NCBI RefSeq assembly: GCF_018143015.1
Contig: NC_054746.1
Coordinates: 34,132,830-34,196,829, forward strand
Source: Lytechinus variegatus
Lineage: Eukaryota; Echinodermata; Echinoidea; Temnopleuroida; Toxopneustidae
Direction: 5' to 3'
DNA: 64,000 nucleotides
Positions within the stretch are counted from its first letter, which is position 1, and every line of letters starts with the position of its first letter. The translations under genes and the position numbers were made by a program. Below are positions 5,728 to 64,000 of this stretch, in pieces. The notes beneath the pieces were generated by a model, which worked only from the letters and a program-made list of their open reading frames with translations, did no database searches and had not been told where the DNA came from.

Positions 5728-7266
5728 TCATTTTTTCTTTGAAGAGGGTGCATATTCTACTAATAATCTATTGAATTCGCGTAACTTTGCATCTTGTTCT
5801 TCAATGAGGAGCCCAAGCTCTTGAACCTGTGATTGTAGTTTCTTTATATCCAAGCTTTGTTGGGATTCATGTTTTTCTTCTTTTTTCGATGATCTCCAAT
5901 ATTCAAATGCGATTGTTCCTGTTGCTACAGAAAATAGAAAGCTTTCACTGATGATCTCTGCTCCTAGTTCTACAGCTGCTTCATTGCTTAAAGGTTTCAC
6001 TTCAGTTGCTTTTCCCAGACCAAGAATTCGCATTCTCAGGTTCACATCCAACCAATGGTAAACTGTTGAAAAGAAGATCAGAACATGGATTAAAATAAAA
6101 GTTCATGACACTGCAAATCAAACCATCAACATGAAAAAAAAGACATCTCACGAGTCACGACTCCTTCAATGAGGAACATGTAATGAAATTGGCACAAGTA
6201 TAGTGAGTGAATGTAGAACATGTACCAACCGTAAACGTGCACATTTACGCATCGGGAAATAGTTTCAATATGCTTAAAACTCTCCAATATCCTTCCAAAG
6301 CTAGTGACCATAAAAAATCACATGCGAAGAGGGTTGCGATCAGAAGCTGATATCCTTCTTTGAAAAAAAGAAAAGGAAACTGATCTTGGAGTAAATATTA
6401 TATCTTTATTTTTGTAGGTATATGTGAACTGATGGTGGAAGTTTGATGAATTTATGAGAAAATTTTGTATTTGTAAATTGAATTCATGAAGTGTTTGGTA
6501 ATAAATACAATCCACTGACATACAGCAGACGACTCTAGATAGACTTTGCTCAAGTCAAATAATCACCTACAATGTAAGTCCTGACTAAGTCAAAGCGTTT
6601 AATTTTTCAGATCACAAGATCCAGTATTACATCCAGGACAAATTTGGCCTAAGTTGGAGGTAGACCCTAAGTGCACATACACTTAGAGGGTTCTATCAAA
6701 GTCAAATTCAGAATCAAATTTCTATTCTGTGATCCCAAAACTCAATTGCCAGAAGTCAAAACAAAAGGCAATCTATTAATTGTTTGAGGGCATGGATCTA
6801 CATAAACATAGAAAAAGAGAGAGAAGGGGGAGTTTAGTTTTCATATTTTAATTGAAAATAAAGTGATTGAATATGAACACGTCATTGATGATTGAATGAA
6901 ATTGAAATCAATTTTCAATGATGTATTCAAGCAATCACTTCATTTCGATTAAAATATGCATCAAACCCTGAAAATAACCCCCCCCCCCTCTTTCTATGTT
7001 GTGTAGAGCCACGCCCTCATACAAATAGATCTCTCAGTCTCAATCACAATGCATTATTGCCATATATCGGAATAAGAAATTCATTTTGGTCTTTATTGTA
7101 GTCCCATATACTGATATTGATGACATTACTTACACTGGGCAGGAGGCATGCACACATATTTCCTCATAAATGGACTATTCTTAGCCATATTTCGAATAGC
7201 TTTGGACATAGGTTTGCTGATCTGCTTCACTGCAAGAGTTCCAAGTTTTATTATCGGAAAAACCAT
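5728..7266 (-). CDS. OPA3: OPA3-like mitochondrial protein (2 exons, 155 aa)
   Basis: Exon 1 is 7,134-7,266 and exon 2 is 5,728-6,062. Exon 1 ends CAGT|GTAAGT, the acceptor is CAACAG, and the phase-1 join gives the conserved AQFYHW (human AQLYHW). Exon 1 begins MVFPIIKLGTLAVKQISKP and keeps the N-terminal mitochondrial leader, the 'ISKP' and the 'YVCMPPAQ' of the family. Exon 2 has MRILGLG, then VKPLSNEAAVELGAE and a hydrophobic stretch before FEYWR, matching human MRIMGF, IKPLNEEAAAELGAE and LEYWR. The C-terminus is a Lys/Gln/Glu-rich coil ending SSKKK. OPA3 proteins sit on mitochondrial membranes and affect mitochondrial shape; human mutations cause optic atrophy. The length is slightly below the human 179 aa. 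The gene stands head to head with the glutaredoxin gene, 411 bp between ATGs. Confidence 0.92.
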
Positions 7267-37326: not shown

Positions 37327-38759
37327 TTTTTTTTTTGGGGGGACCTACATATATATGGAAGTCAATAAAGCCAACTTTCAAATGACACCAAAATGTGTTG
37401 AGCGAGCACTTCCCATTTAAACAAAGGGTATGAAAATTAGGCTGGGCAGGAAATAGCCTTCCAATTTAAGTCAGTTTTTGAAAGGCAAATCCGTTAGAAC
37501 CTGCAAAGTTAAGGGTGTTGTGATAAATTAATGATCAACCGTGGCCAGTTTTGATTGTTAAAGCAAATTTCATGAATTATTAAATTGAACTTTAATGCAC
37601 GAGTGAAGTTCAACACACATTGTATTTTTGGGGGCAGCATTTTAACTTTATTATGTGGATCTCAGCAATGTGTTCATGGGAGTCGGGAGAATAGGGGTGA
37701 GATGGAAATTAAGTGGGAAAAGTAGGTTGATGGAATAAGGTTCAACAGAAAATTTAGCCCCCCCCCCAACCTCCCTCTCACCCGCCCTCCCCTTCTGTTG
37801 AGAGACTGATTGCTATGCGTATGAATTCCAGAGCAGAATTTTCGGAATTTAATGATAAGTTCCGAAAATTGGGGCATAAACTTACCTATCAATCCTTTTG
37901 TCAAAAATTTATCAATAAATCAACTCAATCAATGTGCAATATGCTTGATCAAACATTCATTTTTTAATAAATTATTTGATAAATCATCATCGGCCTAATC
38001 AGTCAATTTCATGGTAATCATTTGGCACCCCTAGTTCAAACATCAATCCCCCCTTATTTCAAACATCAATTTTGCACTCCTACATGGATAGAACATGGCA
38101 GGGGATAAGGTTTTAATATCAATGACACCCTTAAAAATGTTATGAGGGAATGTGGTGACCGGGGAGAAAATCTTTGAAGAATTTGAATAGTAAAAACTTA
38201 ATTGATTTTAGAGCACTTGATGACATGAATGGAATAGTACATTATTACATAATATGGCCCATATATATAGCGATTATTTTTCTTTGTGGTCGAAAAATCT
38301 TGGTAGGGCTTGAGCGATTTTTTTGGGGGGGGAGGGCTTTAATCACCCCCCCCCCCCAAAAAAAAAAAAAAAAAAAAAAAAAACGCGCCTGAAGAAGAGA
38401 AAAAAGGAGGGAAAGAAGAAGAGAAAAAGTGGAAAGACAGAGCGAATGAAACAGTGGAATGGGGGAGAAAGGAAAAAGAAGGGAAAAAGGATACAAGACA
38501 GAAAAAGCGAGAGAAAGAAGAGGGGAAGAGAGTGACGGTCCTACTTTAGGCCTTTTGAGATAAGCTAATCGTGTTTTTGAGAATGAAATTATGATTTTCT
38601 TAAACCTTTTTCTGCAGGACTATCCCCACAACATATTTATCTTGGTGCCCCCTACAAAAGTTCAAGGCCCCCAGTGCACCCAAAGCTAAATAAACCCAGC
38701 TACTTCATGCACTGATGAGATCGAGTCAATGGATTGCATCATTTCCAAGAGGTTCTCAA

Positions 38760-39720
38760 TAATATTCCTGAGATGATGAAAAGGATGTTGGTGGCGATGG
38801 TGATGATGGTCATGATGATGATGTTTATGCTGATGATAATGATGAACATTGGTGATGACGGTGACGATGGTGGTGATGATGATATTGGTGATCATGATGA
38901 TGCTGATTATGATGGTGATTATACTGGTGATACGATGACAATAATGATGGATGATGTTGTGATGATGATGGTGGTGATGGTGCATGGCGATGATGAAGAT
39001 TATGGTGATAATAATGATGGCGATGATGATAGTGGTGATGGCGATGATTATGATGGATGAGAATGATGTTGGTGGTGATGATGATGATGTTGGTGTGATG
39101 ATGATGGTGGTGATGGCAATGATTGTGATATTGATGGCGGCGATGTTGGTGATGATGTTGAATGATAATATGATGATGGTGATTAAGATCATGATGGCGA
39201 TGATGATAGCGATAGTGATGATAATGATGGCGATATAGCGATAACGATTGTGGTGATGATGACGATAATTAAGATAATGGTGGTGATAATGATGGCGATG
39301 ATGATAGCATAGTGATGGCGATGATGATGATGGTGGTGGTGATGGCAATGATTGTGACGATCGTGATGGTGGCGATGATAGAGATGATGTTGGTGGTGAA
39401 CTGGTGATGATGTTCCATTCCTCCTCTACATCCCCTCCTCATCTCTGCTCCTCTCAGCTTCATCTCTCTCTCTCTCATCGTCATCCCCTCCATCGTTTCC
39501 CTCATAATTTCAATCCCTCCTCTCATCATCTATTCCTCTCATCTCAATCCTTCCTTTCATCTCCATGCCTCCTCTCATCATCTCTATCCCTCTCATCTCC
39601 ATCCCTCCTCTCATCATCTCCATCCTTCTCATCTCCAAACCACTTTTCATTACCATCCTTTTCACATCACCGTCTCCATCCCTCCAATTTCAACTTCATC
39701 TCTCCCAAAATGTCCACTTG
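38760..39720. repeat. GAT and CCTCTCATC satellite-like block, right arm
   Basis: GATGATGGTGGTGATG-type repeats (38,760-39,405) run into a pyrimidine minisatellite of CATCTCCATCCCTCCTCT-like units (39,420-39,720). This gives long spurious frames rich in Met/Asp on one strand and His/Ile on the other; these are not genes. Confidence 0.85.
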
Positions 39721-46218: not shown

Positions 46219-49200
46219 TCATGATAAAGTTCCTTGCTCTTGATCCTCTTTGGGTTTCATCTCAATCTCCTTTCCATATTCTTCCACTTTACCTTCTTCC
46301 TCCTTCACCTCTTCTTTCACTTCACTCTCTGCTGACATGTCCTCTGATGTTTGTTCTGTAGCACTCAGAGACTTCATCTCTGCTTCGGACCTCTCCTCTG
46401 GTTTTTCCTCTTTCTCCATCCCATCTTTGTTATCATTTTCATCTTCACCCTTCTCACCCTCTTCCGTGGGTGCATTCTCAGGAGTCTCTTTCTCTGCAGA
46501 TGCCTCTCCTTGGGACTCCTCATCCTTCTCCATTTTCTTCTCTTCCTTCTCTTCATCCATCTTGGCTTGATCTTCCTTTTCAGTAGTTGATTTCTCCTCC
46601 ACCTTCTTCTTGGTCGGTGGTTGTGCTTTTGAGGTTTCTTTTGAGGGTTTGGCTGGTTTGGGTGGAGTCGCCTTTCGTGGGGGTGTTGTGGTTTTCCTGC
46701 TGATGGCCGATGCCCCTACTCCAGTCTTGGTTCCAGGAGCTTGTCTGGACTTTCCAGAATTTCCAGGAGAGTTGGTAGTCTAAAGAAAAAGAGGGAATAA
46801 TTTGTTTATCATGATTATGATTTCAAAAAGAGATGGAACTAGACAGCTTCAATATTAAGCTCACAAGCTTAATTTCTTGTAATAATCTGATACAGAAAAT
46901 CATCATTTTAAATGAAATAAGAAGCTTTCAAATACCAATCATGTAGTAACCTTCACAATAATTATTATGGAATGGTATTTAAGGAGTATGGACAATAGGA
47001 TTACAATATGATATTTTCATGAAAGAAGATTAATGAGTATTTTTTCACATCCCCCTGTCTATTTGCAGGAAAGTAAAAAGTTTGATTCACCACAGGTTTA
47101 GAAAAAAATACTCCTCTAATAGACTAATTCATTACCTGTTTAGACTTTGCACCTGCTGATCTATTTGGAGAACCTGGAGTGCCCTTTCTGGTGTCATTGC
47201 TCTTTATGGTACTCTTCACTAGGGGGTTACTGGCAGGTACCTTGGCACCGGTGTTAGGTGTAGGGCGTTTCAAGGGCCTCTGCTGGGAAGGTTTAGGAGG
47301 TCCACCAGTCTGCTTTTCAGCTTCTTGTGAGTCAGATCCTCCTGGCTCCTCTTCTTTAGTCTAGAAATGAATTTAATTTTCAAATAGGTTTGGATTAACT
47401 TTTATCACATTTCTGCATTAAATAGAATAAGAATAAAGTAATTGCCAGGGTTGCTTCTTGAGCTTCTTGTGAGTCAGACCCTCCTGGTTCCTCTTCTTTA
47501 GTCTAGAAATGAATTAAATTTACAAATAGCTTTGGATTAACTTTTATAATCACATTTCTGCATTAAATAGAATAAGAATAAAGCATTGCTGGGGTTGCAA
47601 CAGTTTTTATCAATAATTTTGAAAAAAAAAAAATTAATGAAATCTAGTAAAGATTTTTTTTTTTCTTGAAAAAAATGAGGCCACGTACTGCATCAGGTCA
47701 AAAGTGTTTATAAGAACACCAGTCAGTGTTCTGAGAGACCCACACTCTTAGGTGTTAAAATATACCATGGAGTTTGGACATATATGTGTCACAAATCACA
47801 TCTCATACTGGTAGAGAGAATAGAGCTTACTTGGTCCTGTTTTTGAAATGCTCCATGGACCTGGACCATCTGGACCAGGGCCATCTTGAAGGAGGCTTTG
47901 CACTTCTGTTCAATCGCTTCCATCAAGGTCTGCTGATATAGTTTTTTGTAACTCCGTCTGATGTATGGAAGGTCCAGCTGCACAATGAAAAGAAATTAAA
48001 AAAAATCAGTATCCTTTTCTCTAACTATGCGCTGCCATTAAAATCATAGATTGCCTTCATCTGGGTCTGTTTATAAAGCATTCTTTAAATCCAGGTCCAC
48101 TTGATGTATTGAAAATCAAGCTATAAAATAGCACAAGGGAATTAATCAACACATGGGGAAAATATTCCATCTGGGGTACTATATTCTGTACAATTATATA
48201 ATCAAAGGGCAAAATTTTGACCCCAAGATGAGTCAACATGGAAGTCATAAAAAAAAGATAAAATGAGAGTGAGAGGAAGAGGCATGCTCTTCTCTTTTCT
48301 ACAGGCTGGTGCTTTTTTGTCTCGTTTTCAGTTTGGTCAATGGAAATAATCACACTCTTGTAGTTCATGATAGATTGCAATTTAGGGTAATTTCGATTGC
48401 TGTTACATGTAATATAATGAAATGACAATATAGCAAATCATATATGATGCAAGCCTACCTCTGATCGGGTGATGATGATTCTAATGAGTGTCATGTCATC
48501 TGCTTCTCCAGTCAGTGATGCATGGATACGTTCAGCAAGGAATTGAGTATTGCTATTCATACATTTCACTGTAACAAAAAAGGTCATATGATATATATAT
48601 CTTATTTAAAATATTCATACATTACATAAACATAGCATGTGTCATCTTCTTTGGCAAATTTATTTGAACAATGCTCATACCTGAATAAATGTACGGTATC
48701 CAATACATCTTTGTACAAGATGGGCCTGGTGTATAATTCTTCTTAAGTCAAGGATGAGCCAAGCATTTTAGCATATGGAAAGTGATCTATCCTTAATCTT
48801 TTCACTACCACACATGTATCTTTCAACTTTTCAATAATTTCTAAATAAGCCTAATCAATTCTACATAAATATGTTAATACTGCTAACGGGAACTAATGAC
48901 ACATGATTCGCAGAGGATAAATGATTAGCTAAAAAGTATGGGAATGATTTTATATAAAGCTAGCTAAACCCAAATCATTTGTGAATAGGTTCTCAGAAAC
49001 TTACCTAGACAGAGCATTGCATCTCTAAAATCCCCAAAGAGTGACTTTTCTAATTCTTTTACCAGATTTGAGTTGGTTAGCTGTAGATTTAAACACAAAA
49101 ATAATGGGTATATGTTAGATCATATACATTTTCTTCATAAAAGCAACAACCTGTCTCCCTCAAAACTGAGCGGATTAATCACAAGTTTGTAAGGGTTAAT

Positions 49201-52200
49201 GTGCCCATTAAAAGTAGAATATGATATACTCTTTTGGCAAATCATATATGTTTGATAATATAGATATGCTAAAACATTTATTTAGAAGACCACGCTATTA
49301 TAACTCTTGAGGAAACAGTGTGTTGCCTATTACTTCTTAGTCAAGCACAGTCATTTTAAAAAATAAATATATAAATCAATTAACTTAATCATCACATCAA
49401 CAAACACACATAATCATTCATGATTATGACAATGCCTCACAGATACACATATTTAGTGGTCATTTGAGTTTGAAATATGTAAGAATAGTTCTGAAAAGAG
49501 GTTCTATAGAATCAAACATTAAAGGATTTTTTTTTAAGTCTGACATTGAAAAGGTAAGTGGCAGAGGTGAGTATCCGAGGAAGACTATAAATGAGTGAGC
49601 AGGATACACTGAATACAATGAAGCGGACTGAGAGAAAAAGAGCAATAAATACTTGCTATGACAAAACATGACAACTGCCATATAAACAGAAAATGAGTTC
49701 CCAATGTCTTTACATGTACCTATTTCTTCTTCAAGCAAATTTCACAGAAAATACCCACCATGCTGTGAAACATATGACTGGTTAATCACTATGCTAATAT
49801 GTAAATGACACAGTTTGCCCTTTTACAGGAAATTATACTTTAATACTTACTAACTCATTAAAAAAATATCCAAGTTAAAAAGGTAAATACAGCCATCCCA
49901 TAATACTACATACCTACATATCTAACAAACTGATTAATTCCATTAACTTTCATTTTATGGGAGGTTCTGAAGAAACACACTTCGATGTACCAATAAATTC
50001 ATTGAATACAAGAGCTGGTATTCTGAAAATGACTTTGTGTTATTTTAATTATTGTAGTGATCAGAAATGAGGTAAACTATTTACTTAACATTGTGTACTT
50101 TTAACTTGCATGCTGGTCTGTGGGTGCAATTTTTGTCTCTTCAACCGATCAAAGTATGCCTACAAAATCTGTTAATTTCACAAAATTTACAACAATAACG
50201 ATAAGATAAAAGACAATCTGATTTTCCCAATAAAAAACCAAGCTCTGTAAACTCCATTAGGAAGAATCATTATTAAATCAGTGCAAGGACCATTCACTTA
50301 CTTTATTATACTGCAAGAGAACCTCCCTGAAATGAAGCAGACTGGATGATTGGAGAAGTTCAGACATCTTCTCACTCCTGGGTGTCCATCTTTCATCTCC
50401 CGCATCCCGGAGTGCCTCAGCGTCTCGTAAAGCAGTCTCATCATCCACATCAACATTCTCTACTCTAACACCCTATGGGAGGATGGTTAAAATGAATACT
50501 ATTAAGGCATTCAAGTGCATAAACATGTAATGAAATTACACCAAGAAGATTTAGGAAAAACATGTTCTAATATATAAATCAGGGCTGTATTTACAGCTGT
50601 AGTTTCAAGACAATGAAATTATTATCTAAATTTTTTAAGAATTGATTAACTATCTGAATTCATTAATATTTTCATATTCATATGTACATAAAAAATATCT
50701 ACCAACCAATGATATTTTCCATTTACTTTGATGTATGTTTCATGAAGTCATATTTACCATGTCTTTTCATGACTTTTCGGTAAATAAAATTTCTCATTTA
50801 TTTAACTCTGATTCTTATAGATCATTTTATAGATCATGATGAACTGGTATTACAATAGTCCTGTCAGTATCTCTTTTCATTTTTGTTCAATTATTTCTTG
50901 AGTACAAAATTAATTTTTGGTTTTACTTACCTTTGAAAGAGCCAAAAATAAGTTCTTGAGTTTGCCTTTTATTTCTGCAGTAATGTCATCTTCTAAGGTG
51001 ACACCATACAACTTGTTGTACGCTTCTCTAATTAAACCAATAGCCTGCAAAAATAGAAAACCATCATATCACTATCATATACTAGTAAATTATCATAATT
51101 ACCATTAATTCTCAAACATTGTCAAAATGTTGAACATGGAAAACTGCCACTATAACATTGTAAGAAATGTAGGTGTTGTAGCACCACCTTTAGTGTCAAC
51201 CAGGTGAGGTGAAATGGTACCTGGCAGGATATTTCCTTGAAGGCACTGAGCACCAGTGACGGTAGCTCACACTAAAGCTGTGGTAATAAGAGCAGCACTT
51301 TGTGTCCTCAGGCCAAAAGTGCTTGATAAATTTAGCTATCATCATTATACAATGATTGTAATATCAACTCTTGTTGGCAACATGTTGAAATCTTAAAATG
51401 TGTTGTTAAAGAGTAGGTTCAATTGTAACTATTAAGAATGTAGTTTCGGATTATCATTACATAATCATGATTTGGTGGCAGCGGTGGGATTAAAATCTAC
51501 TGAAATGACTGATGCCTAAAACAACCTTCACTAAAATAGTCTAGATCACTCCCACCATTGCAACCATCATTATTTTCATCCTCACAGACATTATGGATGT
51601 CATAATCATGACAATTGTTGATATCATCATCAGCAGCAGCATCATTACTATCACCAATGCAAACTCACCACCACCACCAACACCGCCATCATCCTTGTAA
51701 ATACCATCATTACCAAAGACAACATCATCACCATCATCATCATAATTATCATCTTCATCATCATCATTGTCAATACCATCGTTATCAGCATCATCATAAT
51801 CATCATTTTCATCCTCACCACCACCACCATCATCATCATCATCTACTTACAGAATTACTTCTTGTGCAGAGTACCTCAATAATAGGTTCGACTAATGAAT
51901 CATCACCCTGTTGAATAAAAGAAACAGGAGGTAATTTCGAATTTGATGTCATCGAACAAATGTTTTGACCTAAATCTTGAGAGTTCCTATCATAGGACAC
52001 ACTTTCTAATATTTTAATAGAAATTGTATATCAAGTAAAATGAATTATTTTCATATGAAAATTTCATATATAAAGATAAACACAATTTTTCTTAGTAAAA
52101 CTTGCATGTAAAGTCTGCTCAAGGGATCAAGACATGTATATAACGATTTTTGTGAGAATGGTCTTTATGAAGACGCTCCTATAAGACATGTTTTAATAAT

Positions 52201-55200
52201 AATCAAGAGAAATAAACTGGTCTTTATAGACATGTACTGGTAGTCCTTTTATACAATAGGTCGTTAAAGCAGATGTGAATGTATTCTGCTTTCTTGAAAA
52301 TCATCTTTCAATGAGAAAAAGATCACTTTTGATTCAATGTACCTTGAGAGCTCTTCGTATCGTCATGGCATCCAATTCTTCTCTGGTCGTTAGGAGGGCT
52401 TCAACGATATCATCATACTCTGCATTCAGGTTATTCTTCAACTCTTCCTCCAAGGTCTGCAAACATAAAAAAACAACACTTATTTTAAAGATGGTGAACA
52501 GCCTCAAGCATTTTAAATTTAGAAGCATTTGATAAGTACTGCATACATACTTCTCAATTTCACAATACTTTCCACTTGCATATGCAGGGATATAGAATAA
52601 CATATTCCAGAATAACCTAAAAAATTTCAAAACATTTATTCTTCAGAAACTATCCAGGGGAGGGGGCACAAACCCTCTTTTTATGACTTTTTTTCTTTCC
52701 ATATTTCGCTTGTCAATTTTTTAAGGGAAAGTGTTCCCTATGAAAAAAGGATAAAATTTATATTTCATTGTTTTTATTTTTATCATTGTTTTTTAATGAG
52801 TACCACCTTCTGGTATATTATAGAACCACCCCTACCCACAACCAGCATTATTACCTTTATAATCACTTTCACTACCACTATATCATCATCACCATGACAA
52901 TCACCACAATCTCTATACCACATCCACCTTCATTACCAACATCATCACTTTCACCATCATCATTCATACTACAGTCATGGAGATTAGAATAAAGAGAAGG
53001 GAAATAGAGCTGTGTGAACACGTACAAACTCCACTTACCAGACCGTAATTTTCTTCAAACTTCTTCATGGTGTCTTGTCGCTGTTGATATTGACGTTTGG
53101 CTAATGTCTGAACCAAGATCTGTTCCGGATTACCTGCAGAATATAGACATATGGATATTGTCATATCTATCAATTATAATTGCAGAAATAGACTGAAGCA
53201 CACTCCCATCACCCTTGCAGAATCGTAAGGCTTCATTTAAACTCTTCAAATTTCTTCTTAACTCTAAGATATCAAAACAAATTTACAGAGATTTAATATG
53301 TTGTTTTTAAAACAATTACAAAAGTGAAAAGAACAAGCAATTAATACGTTCCTTCAAAATCACACTCCCAAGAAAGACAGTCAGTTCTTGAATTCTTAAG
53401 TCTGGAGTTACCAAAGTTTATTACTTAAATACTACACAGTAAGCCAGCAATCTATTCATTAATGATAACATGATTATTATTATCATCGATTCCATATTTT
53501 GTCAGTATATCTGTTTGATATTCTTACCCATTCCCTTTGTTGCTTTGAAGAGTTTTGCAGCTTCCTCCTTCTGATTGTATGTTGCAATCCTAACCACCGA
53601 GTCTTTCTACAAAAATAAAAGGATCAAGAATCACTGGTAATAAAATGTAAAGTACACATATTAAATTGTATGAGGCCGATAAATGACAAACAACCTTCCC
53701 AATCAGGCTTATACATCATATTTCCCTTGGAACTCTTAGAACAAACAGACAAGTTGCATTTATAAGTTTGAGAACTATAGCAACTAAATGTAAATGGATT
53801 CAATTCCCTCTGTGAGTGGTACTCACGGGAGGAATAAATATATGGTTAAGGGCAACAAAAGGCTATTCACTTTCAATATCAACATGCTATTCTTAATTTT
53901 CTTTATCTATTGAACACAATGGTAATTTACTCTCTGCTCCATTAGGTTTATTCAGTATATCTATAATAATAATTTTGTTCAGACTTGCACACAAAAAGTA
54001 ATTACATTAAAGGTAAATGCTAGTTTTGGTAATGATATCAAAATGAGTTCGTACAGAATCCAATGAAATGACCACTAAAGTGTCTGTTTGTATAAATAAA
54101 ACGCATGTGCCAAAGGATTCTGGAAGAAATTGTGTAATTGCTGAGAAATCAGCAAATAAGCACGGGATTCGGGTAGGGCGTCGGGCCCGACGCCCTGAGC
54201 AATAATTATACATTGTCCCACGTGCGCTTATCTGTGTTGGGGATTTTTGGTGTGAACATTTTTCAGCGTAGATTTCAAGATTTCACAAAGTCCAGTCAAT
54301 GTAACTGTACCAGATCTAGATCCTCGATGATATACTTGCAATTAAGCCTTGTTTTACAGACTTTCTCATGAAATCAGTGTTAACTGCAACTACTGGAATT
54401 TCTCTTTAATATATCATAAATTGTTGTTCAGAAGCTGTTCATTACACCTATTTTAAAAAGCTCAGCAAATTGATTATTGTTAATTCAATGGTGACATGTG
54501 TTTGTGGAATTAAAAAATAAACATGGAACCTAAATTGTATTAACATCTTAAAAGCAATATCTCACCTTTTTCTTCTCCTCAGCCTTTTTCCTCTCTGGTC
54601 CAATCAAAGGAAGTTTTGTGGATCTTCTCTTGAGTTGCTGTCTTGTCGATAATCTCTTTGAAACACCCTACACATGAAAAATATGTATTTCATTCATTTA
54701 TTATTATTCATTTTATATCTATTTCATTTCATTTATTTTAATTTCTCAGTAAATAAAAATGTAGTTTACATTAAACAATATTTATCATAGGGAAATATAC
54801 AAACATTACAGAGAAAATGGTGAGCCAGCAGAGGCAATTGCAATTTCAAAGTCAAGGGGAAAAGTACCATAATAAATTAAACAAATTCAGTATAGAGGGA
54901 GGAGGGGCGCATTAATGTGAAGTAAATTAATTAATTCATCCATAAACATTCGTTCAATTATCTCTGAATCCTTATATTTAGCAATTTTTTTTTCTCCATC
55001 ATTTACCATATAATCATATGGATTATCACACGTTCTGATATTAACAACATAAATTTAAAGAAATAAACAAAAACGACAATTACAAATGGATTCTTGTATC
55101 ACATTTACAATGACAATACAGTAAGCCATATAAGAAAGTTTGGATAGAGTGACCCATTAAAAACTATTGCAAATATGATACATTCATTGTAGAGTATTTC

Positions 55201-58200
55201 TTAACATAAGCTGCTAAAATCTTCTGGATTGTCTATTGTTTCCAAGAATGCAGCACATATTGATTAAACCTTGGTATTGATTCAACTGTCATTCAAATCT
55301 CGTGACTTACCACTTTGGCTGATGTTAATTCTCTGACTTCTCCTTCTACTGGCTCCTCTATCGTCTCTTCAATGTCACCATCAACAAAAGTTTTCTGAAA
55401 CATAGAAATAAATAAACAATATCATGTTCCAACTAAAAAGTGAGCTTTTAAATATTGATACTTTAATTACTTATTGATACTTTAATTACTTATTGATACT
55501 TTAATTACTTATTGATACTTTAATTACTTACTAACTAACAAGTATTTACAGATATCACATCTGCACTATTAATGAATGAATGGATGGATGGATAGATGAA
55601 TGAATCTTTATTTTGTTTTGTCAACAACAGTAAATCATCATATTACAGGTAAAAATCTAAGACCAAAATGTAAATAATCACAGAATAATATTTACTACTA
55701 CATCATTATGGTACATTGCAACATGGATTAGAAAAGAAAGAAAAGAATACTCTTTTTTACCCAGGGGAACCACTGTTGAAAGCTGACCTTCTACTGGCTT
55801 TGAAAAAAATTGTTTTATTATAGTCCTTCATGCCTTGATAATTAAATTATAATTAAGCTCACCTCTTTGTTGGCATGCCTGTCCTTAGCATAGAAGACAA
55901 ATTTATCAGGTTCATCAACACCTCTGAGGTCCACCTCATAGTTCTTCGTGGCCTGCGCCTTCTGAGCTAGGAAGTAGTTATGCATGAGGTAGTCGTCCTC
56001 CTGAAAGTGATAGGGGTGGATGAGAAGGACATGCCATGGAGATTTAACAAATGTATATTAATCCAATTCACATCTGGGAAAGACTTATGTAACAATTTGA
56101 GAGATGTGATTAGGTCTTGAACCTTGAACACCTGCATCAATTTGTGACTTCCCCATATACAACTCAAATTACAGGCGCATGTCACTACATGTACATCCAA
56201 CTTGAAGATCAGACTGGAGAATTGTACATTTCTGAAATTTTCCAAATCAATTAAGACTTTCACTAATCAAACTTTAAACTTGATAAAACAAGGAAATCAT
56301 TTCTTTAGTATATTTTTTTTCATGGTACTAGTTTACAGGGATGTGGCAAGGAAACTATTAGCAATCAATTGTAAATATCAATTACAAATTTCCCAATTCA
56401 TAGATCGCTTTCAATTCCTTAATAATTTTTTTTTCTGTTGCAAGAAGAAAACAAGTCATTAATAGCAAATTTTCAAATAATTGCAAGACTTATGACAGGT
56501 GTTGGGATATTAATTTATTTGCAATTGACAGCCAGTTAATGATATTCAGAGTTAAAATGAAATCCATGCCATTTTTACCAAACTCTGCAAATAGTGACTT
56601 TGTTACCTATATAAGCTAAATATGACCCCCCCCCAAAAAAAAAAAAAAATGACACTGGTTCATGGGATCATTTGCTACTTTAATACCTCTAGGCAAAAAA
56701 AAAGGGAAGTATGGAAATTATTGAGTTGCGACTTAAATCTCAACTGTGAAACTCATTGCTCGAAATATAAAGGTTGGAAGCACAACCTACTATATCATCA
56801 AAACTGTGACTGAATAATCTCATGGTTTAATAAACACTGTTAATGTCACATATATGCACAGAAAACCATTTCCCATTTATGAACATTAGAATTTCATTAT
56901 AACTTCAATTGAATAAAAAAGTGCAGGCCTACTGTCCACAATAGAACAGCACAAACAGACAAACAATTGCATTACTATTGCTCATTTTACAACTGACTAG
57001 TTAACAAAAGTATTGGTGATTGTGGTCTAATTCAAAGCATGTTATTTATAGTATTTGTTGGAAATGAAATATATTCTGAGTTCTGGAAACCTAATATTAA
57101 AACTCACCATCTTGTCAAAATTAACTTGAGGTTTCACATTATTAAGACGTTTAAGTAATAAAGCATTTTCTCGATCTATTCTCTCCTGTTCTCTGTTCTT
57201 ATATGGAGCATGTAACCTGTAAACAAAAAAGAAAACATACTAAAATAAGTAATCAATGCTAATATCTATAACTTATGTAACTGTCCTAAAATTGTAGCAA
57301 ATCATTTCTATATTCTTCATATAATATTGATAATCATTTCTTTTTCTCAACATATATCAATTCGTTCATAGTCATTTTGTCATAAAATTTAATTTTAAAG
57401 AACATGAATATTTTGCTTAAAATATATAAATCAAGCACTAGTCTTAAGTCACAAAAATGTACAAAATGTAACAAGGAGCATCTTTATTAATACAAAAATA
57501 TAGAATATGCTGCTTCAAATGAAAACTTCATACTTTTTTATCAACTTCAATTATCATTATCATTATCAATCTTTAATATGAAAAACTCACGTTTTGGGTT
57601 GGGCTTCATATTCAAAATTCCAGTTATCAATTTGGCCACCAGATCTGATGATGTTTGTCAGCTTTGCTAATAAGATGCGATTCTCATGATCAATCTGGGC
57701 TTGCTTCTCTTCTTCAGCCTGAAAATAAATGAAAATAAAAATAAAATGAATGCTCACCTTTAGGAAAGAGAAAGTGAAGAAGAACTTTCTACATGTTTTA
57801 CCATTTGATTCATTGCAACAAATCCCTATTACAATAATTATAACCTGTAGAATTAATGTCCATGCTACAGTATGAAGGAAAAAGGATGAATATTGGATAA
57901 TAAATGCAAGATGAATGCTTTCTATGGAAAAATCAAAAGTAATCTAATCAAATTCACAACATACCAGTACTGAAATCTCAGAACCTACCAATACCTGTAA
58001 CTTAACTGAGCAAATACATGCATTACACAGGTGTCACCAAGAAAGCCAGGTGAAATGCTATGTTTCTTTAAAATTGAGGTTTAATTAACATTCATAGCAT
58101 ATAATTGTTTCAAGGAAATCACTATGAAAGCAAAGTGGTAATCACATGTAAGTCTTGAACCTTGAAAATAATCTGTTTCAGCAGCTCCAAAGCAGCGCTA

Positions 58201-59113
58201 CATGCATCCATAGTGAACTCCACCAAAATAATAAATTTACAATGTTGCATTATTGAAGATTCAGCCTTTTTTCAATGTGATTTTTCTGATCTCAACTATT
58301 TATAAAAGAAAGAAACCAATACCTGCAACTTCTTCATGTTAACCTGTAGATGGGGGTAGACCTTGGGAGAGGTGGCATCGATCTTGGTCCTCATGCCATT
58401 TTTCTGGGGAAAAAAAATAAAAAATAAGGTACATCAATATTGTCATTAAATTCTGTGAAAACAATCCGAAGGTCAAAATGTCTAGATGCATCAATAACAT
58501 GTACATGTAGTGGAAGAAAAGTGAACTCAAGTAAATAGAATGCATAAGCATGTATCCATAAACAATTGAAACTTTGGTGATTAAAATGTGTTTTACAATT
58601 CTCTAGACAGTCACCTTTGTTATGTTGTATATCCAACTGATTACCCTTCCGATCTTAAACAAAATTATTATCAGAACTAATACAAACAGATCACACATCC
58701 TTTTTTAATTACACTTCATATCCTAATACTGTACCAAACAAAACTCTGATAACAGAAATAAACAAAGAAGAAATAAAGTAAACATTAAACGACAGACACA
58801 TTTCCTGTTCATTTTATGTCATTTCTTATTGATCTCTAATAATGAATACATGTACACTGTACTATTTAAATGTACTATTAATTGGTCAACTGAACAGTAT
58901 CTATTTATTCCTTTTAAAAGTCGAATCACTGAAGTATATACTTTTCCTTTAGAACATACAGTAGGCCTTGTACCACACCTTAAGTGGATATTAATCATGT
59001 AATTACAAACGACTCACCATATTTCTTGATGTTAATTTATTTCCCTTAACATTAAAATTCTTCAATAAAAATGTGTAACCACGCTTCAGACTTTGATGTT
59101 TCCTTCTTGTCAT
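46219..59113 (-). CDS. CFAP97-domain / annexin-core fusion protein (18 coding exons, 828 aa)
   Basis: Exons, 5' to 3': 59,018-59,113; 58,323-58,403; 57,591-57,718; 57,108-57,216; 55,863-56,000; 55,311-55,394; 54,566-54,667; 53,528-53,606; 53,039-53,133; 52,343-52,456; 51,851-51,907; 50,931-51,044; 50,302-50,472; 49,005-49,080; 48,459-48,568; 47,831-47,977; 47,136-47,360; 46,219-46,779. All are GT-AG and in phase. Residues ~33-138 match the CFAP97/hemingway ciliary family: KVYPHLQVNMKKLQAEEE, then two IDHEN/IDREN...LL repeats. Residues ~262-567 are four annexin repeats: KGMGNPEQILVQTLAKRQ (R1), LVEPIIEVLCTRSNS (R2), HFREVLLQYNK (R3), DMTLIRIIITRSELDLPYIR (R4). Calcium loops are eroded: R1 has KGMGN, and R2-R4 lack KGxGT. 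Residues 568-828 are Lys/Pro-rich, then Glu/Lys-rich. Annexins bind membranes; CFAP97 proteins act in cilia and sperm tails. A membrane or microtubule role in cilia is inference. Two adjacent genes are unlikely because no stop or start separates the parts. Confidence 0.88.
47461..47598 (-). repeat. Tandem duplicate of the exon-17 acceptor of the CFAP97-annexin gene
   Basis: About 135 bp at 47,324-47,455 (start of exon 17 plus upstream intron) are repeated here with few changes. The copy keeps the CTAG acceptor at about 47,505 and 14 codons (TKEEEPGGSDSQEA), then reads on in an open frame into AT-rich sequence with no exon-17 continuation. If spliced, it would give a protein without the charged tail. 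Confidence 0.75.
50095..50159 (-). other. Possible alternative terminal exon of the CFAP97-annexin gene
   Basis: Between exons 13 and 14 a good acceptor (ATTTTGTAG) precedes an in-phase open stretch AYFDRLKRQKLHPQTSMQ and a stop at 50,095-50,097. Using it would end the protein in the middle of annexin repeat 3. It is not needed for the annexin fold, since exon 13 to exon 14 joins exactly as other annexins do. It could equally be a chance open stretch. Confidence 0.25.
51600..51845. repeat. CAT/CAC microsatellite abutting exon 11 of the CFAP97-annexin gene
   Basis: Interrupted CATCATCACC repeats end only a few bases from the exon-11 donor (51,850). A second CAT-rich stretch lies at about 52,845-52,975. 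Both generate spurious His-rich or Met-rich frames. Confidence 0.85.
55454..55531. repeat. 19-bp tandem repeat, 4 perfect units
   Basis: ATTGATACTTTAATTACTT is repeated four times without change in the intron between exons 5 and 6 of the CFAP97-annexin gene. The perfect identity suggests recent expansion. Confidence 0.9.
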
Positions 59114-59163
59114 TATTTTGATAGAATTATTCATAAGTTTCAAAGTGAAATCAACTAGTCACT

Positions 59164-59176
59164 GTTGCTAGGCAAC
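59164..59176. promoter_or_regulatory. RFX X-box in the promoter of the CFAP97-annexin gene
   Basis: GTTGCTAGGCAAC is a 13-base palindrome-like site that fits the RFX consensus GTNRCC-N-RGYAAC-type inverted repeat. It lies 51 bp upstream of the start codon of the minus-strand gene. X-boxes at this distance drive ciliary genes through RFX factors across animals. The site is the same read on either strand apart from its centre. It fits the ciliary CFAP97 domain of the gene. Confidence 0.75.
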
Positions 59177-59400
59177 CTGAGAGCCTCATATGCAGTTGCT
59201 CAGAAACAACAGAAAGTGGTTTGAGTGTAAGCGATGTTATACCGTATATGCACCTGTATTATATTAGGTTACAGGAAAACACTTTTTCAATTCACACAAA
59301 ATGGTTCTTTTTATTATATTCAGACTTATTTGAATGTACAAAAGATTGAATAATAAGTGTATTAATTCCATTGAAGTATTTGAGCTACTATCAAGACTAT

Positions 59401-59691
59401 AGCCCGCCCAGAACTACTGAAGATATTTATATCTCAATAAATAGAGTAAAATTCACTAAGCAAAATTCTGAAAATTTGATCAAAATGTTGGGATGTGACA
59501 TCATCAGCCCACCAAATGGATATTCATGATGATGTGCATATAACTGATTTCACAAAATACTGATAAACTTTAAAATTAAATAACTTTGTTATTTGTTATC
59601 TGATTTTGATGAAATTTTCAGCATTTTTGCTCAGTGAATTTTACTTTATTTATTTAGAGATAAATATTTTTAGCCTGGACTATCCCTTTAA
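59401..59691. mobile_element. MITE-like inverted-repeat element, family B copy 3, shortened
   Basis: It carries the family B right end (TAGCCTGGACTATCCCTTTA) and the arm words 'gatgaaattttcagca' and 'gacatcatcagcccacc'. At about 290 bp it is half the length of the copy at 35,334, with the central part missing and a decayed left tip. Confidence 0.8.
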
Positions 59692-62012
59692 GATGACCTC
59701 TTAATTTACCCTGCTATAGCTGTTCATTCCCTGTCAGATATAGAATTATGGTTATGTTTTGATATTTTAGATTTGGCTTTAAAAGCAAATTTACAGATTT
59801 TCTATCTACATGTATGCAATTGTACATGAGATGTCATGGAATCAGAGATTTAAGTCTCATAGAGGTAATTGGAAAATTATTCCTTCCAATATCAATTCTT
59901 TGGATTTAATCGGAATCAACAGATTCATCTGGTTTTGGAGGGTGCTTTGCAACTTTTTTTTTTGCAATGCCATTAGGCTCCTACCCCTGCCACATTTCCA
60001 TTCACCCTTAAAAAATCCAATGTGTTCAGCTGACTTTTCTTTATCTGTTCAAGACACATAATTTTCAGCCTGTGGAGTACCCCTTTATACATTCCTATCA
60101 CCCTATCTGCAACCCCCACACACATCCAGTGGCGCCACTGAGAGAAATATCAAATGAGGATTATTTCTTGTGTTTAATCTTATTTCACTCTTCAAATGTA
60201 CTGTCTACATGTACTATGTTTCAGAGAATTATAGTCTACATAAATTGCAAGTGATGTGATTAAAAATCCTTACTTACCAGCATGAACAAGAAAATATTGT
60301 ACCACAATACAGGAATTACAAAGTAAATTGCACATGCTCAGCCTTTTGTTATGAGTGATTTATTACTATTTGATTTACTCAAATTGGATTAAGAAGGTGT
60401 TTTATCAAATCAAAGCTCTTTTCACACCCACATTAACTTACAATGCAGGGTACAAAAATGTCATCTTCACAAATCTGTAGCTTACAGATGACCATACATA
60501 TATATTTGTACACATATTTCATTATGAAAGCACTCAGCATCCTCAAGTGGCCTTCCCTACTCCCCCACCACAAAGTACAATATCTTTTTTTTTAACCCAC
60601 AGAGTGTATTGTTCATGAACCTTTGAATATTTTCTTTCTTTTGAAAATTACTTGGTGTGTTAAACTTTCTTTTCAACATTTAATCATACATGTCATTTCA
60701 AAACAAATTTCACAAAAATGACTGTCTGATACTAAAAACAAATTTTACACAAACGACCGTCTGATACTAAAAATCCACTCCATTGTTCATGTTTCCAAGC
60801 AACGATAGCTGCAGCAAAACTATTCCATCCACCTCATTTTTTCAAAGTCAAGTATAATCATTTCTACAGGACAAAGTGCACACAAGAAGCTTGTTGCAAA
60901 GATGAAGTTGTCAGTTTATCAATCATATAATGCCATATGGTAGTATTTATTTTGTGCTCACTAGAGGCATCACATGAAATAAGTTAAACATCTAATGATC
61001 TCCTTTTTTCTGCTCTACATGTATGTAAAGAATCTCTCTTTCTAATCAGAGTAAGTTACATACAACACTTTTAATATGAAATAGCAAGTTTAATCACTAC
61101 ATGTAAGTCTCACCATGATTTATATCATTTGAATGAATAAAATGAACCCTGGTAAACCTTTCAATAATTCATATTAAAAGGTAAATTATAAATAAAGCTA
61201 ATTATGACATCAACAGCTCTTTTAAGAAAGGGGAAAACTAATGATCTTTTACAATAAAGTACTAAAAAAAATGAAAACATTCCAAGACAAAAACCCAGAA
61301 GTAAATGGCTTTCTTAAATTTTAATTTCAAAATTTGATACTTTTGGTGTTATTTCTTCGGATTCCTCGATACTCTTGATGCAACTATGTACTTCAGATTA
61401 TATCTTTGTTTGGAGGGGGGGGGGCATTTACCAATTTATGGAACCAGTGTTACAGAAAGTCAGATACACTGTGGCCTACATGTACTTCTACCTGTACACA
61501 TACATGAAGCTAATACACAAATATAAAGAGTTAGCATATATAGTTCTGGGTTTCACTCAGCAGATATACATACTATGTATACCTCCCACTAATGTTGTAT
61601 TGATTTTAGCATTGATTTTTAATATATTATCTGATTCAGTGTCGATGAAATTGAAAACAGCTGCATTAATATGTGTATTAGGTAGAGGACTGCCATAAAG
61701 TCATTGCTTATTCATTTCCAGATTGATTATATCTGATAGTGACTGATTATGAGCCTGATGACTTCTGAATTCTGTGATTCCCGTTGACTTTGCACAGGGA
61801 CCACCCAGTTCCAGAAGGCAAAGGGTTACATGATATTAACTCCAAACTGATCATTATCAATATCAGTTATACTAGATCTCAAAAATATATAGTGCATAAT
61901 AGCTGCTCATAAGGAACAGATAAAAAAACTAGGCCACATTTAGTAGGAATGAACTCTTTGGAGACTCTGAGACAAGAAGCATGAAACGGTTTTATTTTTC
62001 TCATCACCAGTT

Positions 62013-62577
62013 TAAAGGAGAATGAAATCTTTGAAACAAGAAAACAGAAAAATCAAAGAATAAGAACAAAGAAAGTTTGAGAAAAATTGGTCAAATAGTG
62101 AGAAAGTTATGAGCATTTGAATATTGCAATCACTAATGCTACGGAGATCCTCTCATTGGCAATGCGACAAGGATGTGTGATGTCACATGTGAACAACTTT
62201 CCCTTTGATGGACTACAAAATACCCTCAAAATGTCTCTTTTTGCTTTTTCTTATGGTGATACAAACTCTTTATCCATGATGTATTCTTTAAAACTCTGTA
62301 TTACATGCCCTCCTATAGAAAGAACACATGATGTACTGATAGATGTGATAAAAAAGGCAATTTAAGTGAAATATATATACTAAAGTAATGGGGAGAGTTG
62401 TTCACAAGTGACATCATACATCTTTGTCGCATTGCCAATTTGAGGATCTCCATAACATTAGTGATCGCAATATTCAAATGCTCATAACGTTCTCATTATT
62501 TGTCCAATTTTTCTCGAATTTTCGTTACTGTTTCTTTGATTTTTCTGTTTTCACACAACCTACCTTTAATTTGGTGT
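62013..62577. mobile_element. MITE-like element with ~160-200-bp inverted arms, family C
   Basis: The left end is TTAAAGGAGAATGAAATCTT and the right end ACACAACCTACCTTTAAT. The arms match closely inward: 'aaaacagaaaaatcaaaga', 'gttatgagcatttgaatatt' and 'ggagatcctc' each recur as reverse complements. The ~200-bp centre is unpaired. Non-coding. Confidence 0.85.
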
Positions 62578-64000
62578 GTGGGTAAAGGAATGAGAAAAAT
62601 AACTGATGCCTAGCCTTAAATGAACTAGGCAAATTTTTATGATATTAATAACATAATATTGTCAGCAACAATATACAATGCATTCCCCAAAATACATCCA
62701 CTCCATTGCATATTTGCAATGCATTAAAAAGTATTTTATGTCCGTTTGGTATTGGGTTGCAGCAGGTGAAAATGTATTGTGAAATTATTTGATGTCCATT
62801 TATTTGATGTTCATCATTTGATGTCCATCACTAACAATACTCTACAAGAGGGATAGACTCTAATGGAAGAGGAATATATATTAAGCACCATCACTACATT
62901 TGCAATTTTGTAATTTCTCTTATCCAAGAATATGGGGACAAGTACTTGTATATTTGAAAGTTTACCCCTCCCCTGTATGACATGGATCCCTGGGCTGTAC
63001 TGTACATGCAGGCCTATACATGTATGCTACTGACTTAATATGCTTTATAAATAAGATTTTTTTTTTCTTAAGCTTTGAAATTTGACCCACAAACAAGTCA
63101 GAGGTGTACATGAACACTGAATTTTCCACTGTACCTTTAGTCCTTTACAAATTGCTTCCTTTATAGTGCCCAATGTAATCCTTGATGATCAACACAATAA
63201 TTAGCTGACCAACTGAGCCCTGTTATGAGATTGGGCTAGGATCTATGTAAATTGTGTGTTACACTAAAATTGTATCATGATTGGTTAAACTGTGGATCAG
63301 CAATACGCAGCTCTGACAAAGTCTTCTGGTGAATTAATAGAATTATGAATATGAAAATTCTCAAGTCGTCAGGGAAAGTGATAAACTAGCAAATGAATAA
63401 TAAGGGAACCATGGTGATGTCACATACTCTTTCCCATCAAAATAGGTGAATGCATACTGTACATATGTACAGTATAGTGAATTCCAGTCGAGATCCTGTA
63501 CTAGTAGAGCCTGATATTTCTGGCAAATGTAAGCATGTGCATAATATCCACCAACAAACATTCATTTTTTAATTTAGATTTTGGCTGTTTTTTTTAATAA
63601 AATTTGAATCAGTCACTAATCATATTTGGGTTGATATTTCTCTAAAATAGATAAAGTCCCTAAAGTTTGAGGTAGGCCTCCATTTGTTTAAAGATAATTA
63701 AGTACAAAAAAAACACCTTTCGATTTGCCACACCTTAACAATGCCACAATACATCTACACTTAATCCTGCTGCACTCTCAGAAGGCAAATTATACTGGGG
63801 AAAAAGATTGATAAACAGAAATATCCTACAGTATATAAGCAGAATTTTGCCGATCATAATTAAAAAATATATAACTTTCATGTAATTCGACTCCATTAAT
63901 GCAGTAACAAAGTCAGTCTTAAATGTTTTAAAGCAATACCCAAACTAGACCATATTTTTATGTTGTAGCATCATTCTTTTGTTTCATTTCCATCTCTTGC

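What the first reader, a model, noticed from the sequence alone, without database searches (positions are those of the whole stretch)
46219..59113. CFAP97 ciliary domain fused to a complete four-repeat annexin core
Eighteen exons join in phase without an internal stop and read from a CFAP97/hemingway domain into a full annexin core and a long charged tail. Annexins usually have short, variable N-termini, and CFAP97D proteins are small stand-alone proteins. I know of no described CFAP97-annexin architecture. It would be a membrane-binding fold placed in the cilium by a ciliary domain.
Basis: partly seen in the sequence, partly recalled or inferred. Interest (0 to 1): 0.88.

Follow-up and report, generated by a model that had tools for sequence, protein, structure and literature searches.

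The report
Ciliary CFAP97 domain fused to annexin
A sea urchin gene joins a protein module known from ciliary microtubules to an annexin, normally a calcium-dependent membrane-binding fold; the join is real and shared by many marine invertebrates, but in this protein the annexin part has lost its usual calcium sites.

Summary

Two corrections. And 0 of 4 type II calcium sites remain, so calcium-driven membrane binding is unlikely in this protein. I read it as an adaptor: CFAP97 holds it on the doublet microtubule and the annexin core docks a partner. Location and partner are inferred, not shown.

Ten open-access paper searches found no description. It is a new variant built from two known families, ancient within Bilateria if the annelid case holds.

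The parts
59018..59113 (-).
   Evidence: Good donor and phase, but 8/25 identity to P0001 where the other segments are about 95-99%; relatives have another N-terminus not found in the window
58323..58403 (-). Exon 2, first supported coding exon; start of the CFAP97 domain
   Evidence: GT-AG, phase 0; Pfam match from residue 34
57591..57718 (-). Exon 3, CFAP97 domain
57108..57216 (-). Exon 4, end of CFAP97 domain
55863..56000 (-). Exon 5, conserved helix after CFAP97 and start of linker
55311..55394 (-). Exon 6, variable acidic linker
54566..54667 (-). Exon 7, basic linker (LPLIGPERKKAEEKKK), conserved except in the annelid, where it is weak
53528..53606 (-). Exon 8, annexin repeat 1 begins; first half of the loop KGM-GNPE
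53039..53133 (-). Exon 9, annexin repeat 1
52343..52456 (-). Exon 10, annexin repeats 1-2; capping acid of repeat 1 replaced by N
51851..51907 (-). Exon 11, annexin repeat 2; loop KGDDSLV begins at the end of exon 10 and runs into this exon
50931..51044 (-). Exon 12, annexin repeat 2; acidic cap E kept
50302..50472 (-). Exon 13, annexin repeat 3; loop GDERWTPRS
49005..49080 (-). Exon 14, annexin repeat 3; cap replaced by S
48459..48568 (-). Exon 15, annexin repeat 4; loop TGEADDM, one residue short
47831..47977 (-). Exon 16, annexin repeat 4; cap replaced by K
47136..47360 (-). Exon 17, tail with the conserved PLKRPTPNTGAKVPASNPL motif
46219..46779 (-). Exon 18 with stop; charged tail, mostly low-confidence in the model of P0001

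Best explanation
The locus is one gene, in an echinoid close to Lytechinus pictus, for a fusion protein: a CFAP97 helical module, a basic linker, a four-repeat annexin core without a canonical calcium site, and a charged tail with a short conserved PL[KR].P...NP[LI] motif. SHOWN by sequence or model: architecture, sharing with relatives, loss of the calcium sites in this protein, annexin fold. INFERRED: the CFAP97 module binds ciliary doublet microtubules, as CFAP97D1 does in mammalian sperm, and the annexin core is a calcium-insensitive docking platform for a partner (a protein, tubulin, or lipid without calcium) instead of a calcium-switched membrane binder. It may act in cilia other than the sperm tail, or in a part of the axoneme not yet modelled.
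Against: No localisation, expression or binding data were available. The CFAP97 part is further from CFAP97D1 (52.7 bits) than a protein without annexin, P0016, is (103.8 bits), so its binding may differ. The fusion is not among solved structures by sequence (best match annexin VI, 276 bits, where close relatives score over 1000), so doublet binding is not shown. Calcium loss is not uniform: 2 of 13 relatives (Saccoglossus GIGT...D, Amphiura GSGS...E) have a complete site in repeat 2 by the same rule, and the window protein keeps the acidic cap there. Annexins can bind lipid or protein by other surfaces (recalled).
Confidence: 0.58

Rival explanations
1. It is a calcium- or lipid-responsive tether between axoneme and ciliary membrane: CFAP97 on the doublet, annexin on the membrane, with calcium bound through non-canonical sites or lipid bound without calcium.
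For: Annexin fold kept in the model. Saccoglossus and Amphiura keep one complete type II site each (2 of 13 relatives). Thecamonas P0017 joins CFAP97 to a C2 domain, another common calcium/lipid module. The annelid P0015 ends in the start of a further annexin repeat with a canonical GWGTNE loop.
Against: 0 of 4 sites in the window protein; no intact loop and 3 of 4 acidic caps replaced.
Confidence: 0.27
2. Two neighbouring genes, a CFAP97 gene and an annexin gene, wrongly joined by the reader and by automatic annotation.
For: Most relatives look like predicted gene models, and a shared prediction pipeline could repeat an error. I had no cDNA.
Against: Linker between the domains conserved, tail motif in 14 of 14, one transcript-like contig carrying both domains (P0014).
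Confidence: 0.03
3. A degenerating gene: the annexin core is a decaying passenger under relaxed constraint.
For: Calcium sites lost; the crinoid Anneissia model lacks part of repeat 2, though that may be a gene-model fault.
Against: Against L. pictus the annexin core is as conserved as the linker (306/314 and 79/81), and the core is still predicted to fold with good confidence.
Confidence: 0.07

Closest known systems
Annexin family (PF00191); highest identity among the 50 rows: annexin A13a (35%)
   Different: About 250 residues with a CFAP97 domain in front; long tail behind; no canonical type II calcium site in the window protein
CFAP97 / CFAP97D1 / Hemingway family (PF13879)
   Same: CFAP97 domain well above the Pfam cut-off
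   Different: CFAP97D1 chains are 164 aa; here the domain is the N-terminal part of an 828-aa protein and more divergent
Alpha-giardins and diplomonad flagellar annexins (PMC4863580, passages seen)
   Same: Annexin-fold proteins, alpha-giardins with mostly lost calcium loops, several in flagella and near tubulin
   Different: No CFAP97 domain mentioned in the passages seen; common descent of the flagellar role not tested
Thecamonas CFAP97-C2 protein (P0017)
   Same: CFAP97 domain followed by a module often linked to calcium/lipid binding
   Different: C2 instead of annexin; its CFAP97 part groups, with modest support (87/77), with P0016 and 8snb chain 4T, not with the annexin fusions

Membership tests
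Annexin | Four annexin repeats of about 70 residues | tested here: met
Annexin | At least one type II calcium site (G-X-G-T/S loop, then D/E about 40 residues on) | tested here: not met
   0 of 4 in the window protein; 4 of 4 in each control (6b3i, 1m9i core 1); 1 of 4 in 2 of 13 relatives, 0 of 4 in 11. Some accepted annexins also lack it, e.g. S. salmonicida annexin 13 (PMC4863580, passage), so this excludes a canonical calcium-dependent annexin, not homology
Annexin | Calcium-dependent binding to acidic phospholipid | not testable with these tools
   Needs protein
Annexin | Short variable N-terminus before the core (usual, not strictly defining) | tested here: not met
   About 250 residues with PF13879 precede the core
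CFAP97 | Hmw_CFAP97 domain above the curated cut-off | tested here: met
   68.9 bits against a cut-off of 25.6; 70.2 in P0001
CFAP97 | Small stand-alone protein (CFAP97D type) | tested here: not met
   828-829 aa with annexin core and tail
CFAP97 | Located in cilia or flagella | not testable with these tools
   No localisation data; absent by sequence from solved structures
Ortholog group of CFAP97-annexin fusions | Same order of domains, linker and tail motif; fused parts group together in trees | tested here: met
   14 proteins; annexin cores of 13 apart from 4 controls (three PDB cores and P0010) with support 97/100; CFAP97 parts of 11 apart from 4 rows without annexin with 89/93. Few controls, midpoint rooting; the annelid row is long-branched

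The most novel reading that the evidence does not exclude
An unnamed, bilaterian-old family of axonemal annexins: annexin cores, mostly without calcium sites, held on the doublet microtubule by CFAP97 and kept in echinoderms, hemichordates and at least one annelid. In the annelid the degenerate core appears to be followed by a canonical one, which would place a calcium-responsive annexin on the axoneme. (Odds lowered from 0.40, and the main odds from 0.60, after a recount showed that 2 of 13 relatives, not 1, keep a calcium site.)
Probability: 0.37. Interest if true: 0.72.

Novelty: new variant of a known kind. Interest (0 to 1): 0.55.

Why it matters
Annexins are known mainly as calcium-switched membrane binders. 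An annexin core without calcium sites, fused to a module known from sperm doublets and shared across echinoderms, hemichordates and perhaps annelids, points to a second, structural use of the fold in cilia, parallel to the annexins of diplomonad flagella. It is hidden in databases under unrelated names, and sea urchin embryos and sperm make it directly testable.

Tried and rejected
Searching the window's own genome for the missing first exon: three tries got no answer, so its place is unknown. The first structure job (crinoid P0011 as lead row) gave pTM 0.30 and was not used; the second (P0001, pTM 0.44) was. The 50 VIA-align rows are all annexins or annexin fusions, and the part of the model they test is residues 250-561, so nothing is said about the fold of the CFAP97 part. 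I rejected 'found nowhere else', since 14 proteins carry it, and 'echinoderm only', since hemichordates and an annelid have it. I do not claim it is missing from vertebrates, insects or cnidarians: the searches need shared 5-letter words, one search scored only the 7988 candidates sharing most words, and none of the 16 hits is a vertebrate CFAP97, which shows limited reach. The duplicated piece of exon 17 (47458-47583) has an acceptor, but I saw no usable donor, so I do not count it as an exon. Rfam and tRNA scans of the window gave nothing. Paper searches that gave nothing on this architecture: all ten; one paper was not held.

Full report
WHAT IS THERE. The gene lies on the minus strand. Pfam finds an annexin match with four stretches (E 1.2e-45) and Hmw_CFAP97 at residues 34-126 (E 6.8e-19).

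RELATIVES. A search with residues 33-570 scored 7988 candidates (those sharing most words) and gave 10 proteins at E 1e-3 or better: nine with both Pfam domains and one annexin without CFAP97. A search with residues 1-170 of the Ptychodera protein gave 6 of 71 candidates, all six with both domains. A profile search with the annexin part masked gave 16 of 4048 candidates at E 0.01 or better: 14 with both domains, one with CFAP97 alone (P0016) and one CFAP97-C2 protein of Thecamonas trahens (P0017). The 14 are from Lytechinus pictus, Strongylocentrotus purpuratus, Diadema antillarum, Diadema setosum, Amphiura filiformis, Apostichopus japonicus, Asterias amurensis, Anneissia japonica, Antedon mediterranea, Ptychodera flava, Glandiceps talaboti, Saccoglossus kowalevskii, the annelid Ridgeia piscesae (taxonomy) and one unnamed source. 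That covers the five living echinoderm classes (classes recalled). Residues 33-570 are 98% identical to the L. pictus protein, so the window is probably from that genus (inference).

ONE GENE, NOT TWO. After CFAP97 the relatives keep a helix, and before the annexin core a basic linker of the form [LF]PxxGxxR[KRV]K, weak in the annelid. Behind the core, 14 of 14 keep a short motif, P[LM][KRHQ]xP...[NS]P[LI], written from these same proteins; three search hits that are not fusions (P0010, P0016, P0017) lack it. P0014 is an unbroken 616-aa ORF on a contig of at most 4,006 bases. In the window the same stretch, from the end of exon 2 on, takes about 11 kb with some 15 introns, so that contig looks like a spliced transcript (inference). 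Trees put 13 fused annexin cores apart from three PDB annexin cores and P0010 (97/100) and 11 fused CFAP97 parts apart from four rows without annexin (89/93); controls are few and the annelid row is long-branched.

EXON 1 IS NOT SUPPORTED. Aligned to P0001, identity is 132/133 in CFAP97 and its following helix, 79/81 in the linker, 306/314 in the annexin core and 251/265 in the tail, but 8/25 in exon 1. Relatives with a complete start share an N-terminus with F..N..LQKKW, which tblastn over the window and an ungapped scan of both strands from 58404 to 64000 do not find; only weak matches appear. The true start probably lies beyond the window. An alternative first exon or a tiny split exon is not excluded.

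HOW IT MAY WORK. In mammalian sperm CFAP97D1 is a doublet-associated protein that is lost together with EFCAB3 when TSSK6 is missing, while the inner proteins stay (PMC13066092, passages; PMC11779644, one legend); I take that to mean it lies on the outside. Its loss harms sperm axonemes (PMC7444823, passages including part of the abstract), and the fly CFAP97D1 is ciliary (PMC10425847, passages). I infer that the CFAP97 part binds the doublet here too. Some annexins of diplomonads lie at flagella and near tubulin, and alpha-giardins mostly lack intact calcium loops (PMC4863580, passages); in the same passages two diplomonad annexins do bind phospholipid with calcium, so flagellar annexins need not be calcium-free. 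A calcium-insensitive scaffold on the axoneme is the simplest reading for the window protein. Against it: its CFAP97 part is further from CFAP97D1 (52.7 bits) than P0016 is (103.8 bits), and no chain in the PDB matches the fusion (best 276 bits to annexin VI). The best PDB match of the CFAP97 part, 8snb chain 4T, is a CFAP97 of 231 aa without annexin; I recall that entry as sea urchin sperm doublets. If so, urchins have both forms, and the fusion is not in the modelled sperm doublet.

THE ANNELID. Ridgeia P0015 has CFAP97, a core with no calcium site, the tail motif and then the start of a further annexin repeat with GWGTNE, where the protein ends soon after. Either the annelid protein has a second, canonical core, or its model has run into a neighbouring annexin gene.

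NOVELTY. Ten searches of the open-access library found no paper that describes this architecture (listings seen, plus passages of five papers). The library lacks most subscription papers. The proteins are in public databases under names such as DNA ligase 1, myosin-9-like, neurofilament medium polypeptide-like, annexin A7-like and annexin A13-like.

Noticed in passing
window 47316-47438 and 47458-47583: Tandem duplication of the start of exon 17 and its upstream intron (90 nt at 93% and 35 nt at 100%, spacing 142-145). The extra copy keeps the acceptor; I saw no usable donor.
   Followed up: partly
window 5731-6102, minus strand: Open stretch matching OPA3 (PF07047, E 1.4e-27), a separate gene at the other end of the window.
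   Followed up: no
window 38686-39435, minus strand: The longest stop-to-stop frame listed (250 aa) is simple-sequence repeat (histidine and isoleucine runs), with a weak, below-cut-off Pfam match.
   Followed up: partly
P0017, Thecamonas trahens (465 aa): CFAP97 joined to a C2 domain: another pairing of CFAP97 with a module often linked to calcium and lipid.
   Followed up: no
P0015, Ridgeia piscesae, residues 595-638: Best-scoring annexin stretch of this protein is the cut-off start of a further annexin unit with a canonical calcium loop, behind the degenerate core.
   Followed up: partly
window 51626-51850 and 52835-52963: Runs of imperfect ATC/ACC repeats in the introns between exons 11 and 12 and between exons 9 and 10.
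   Followed up: no
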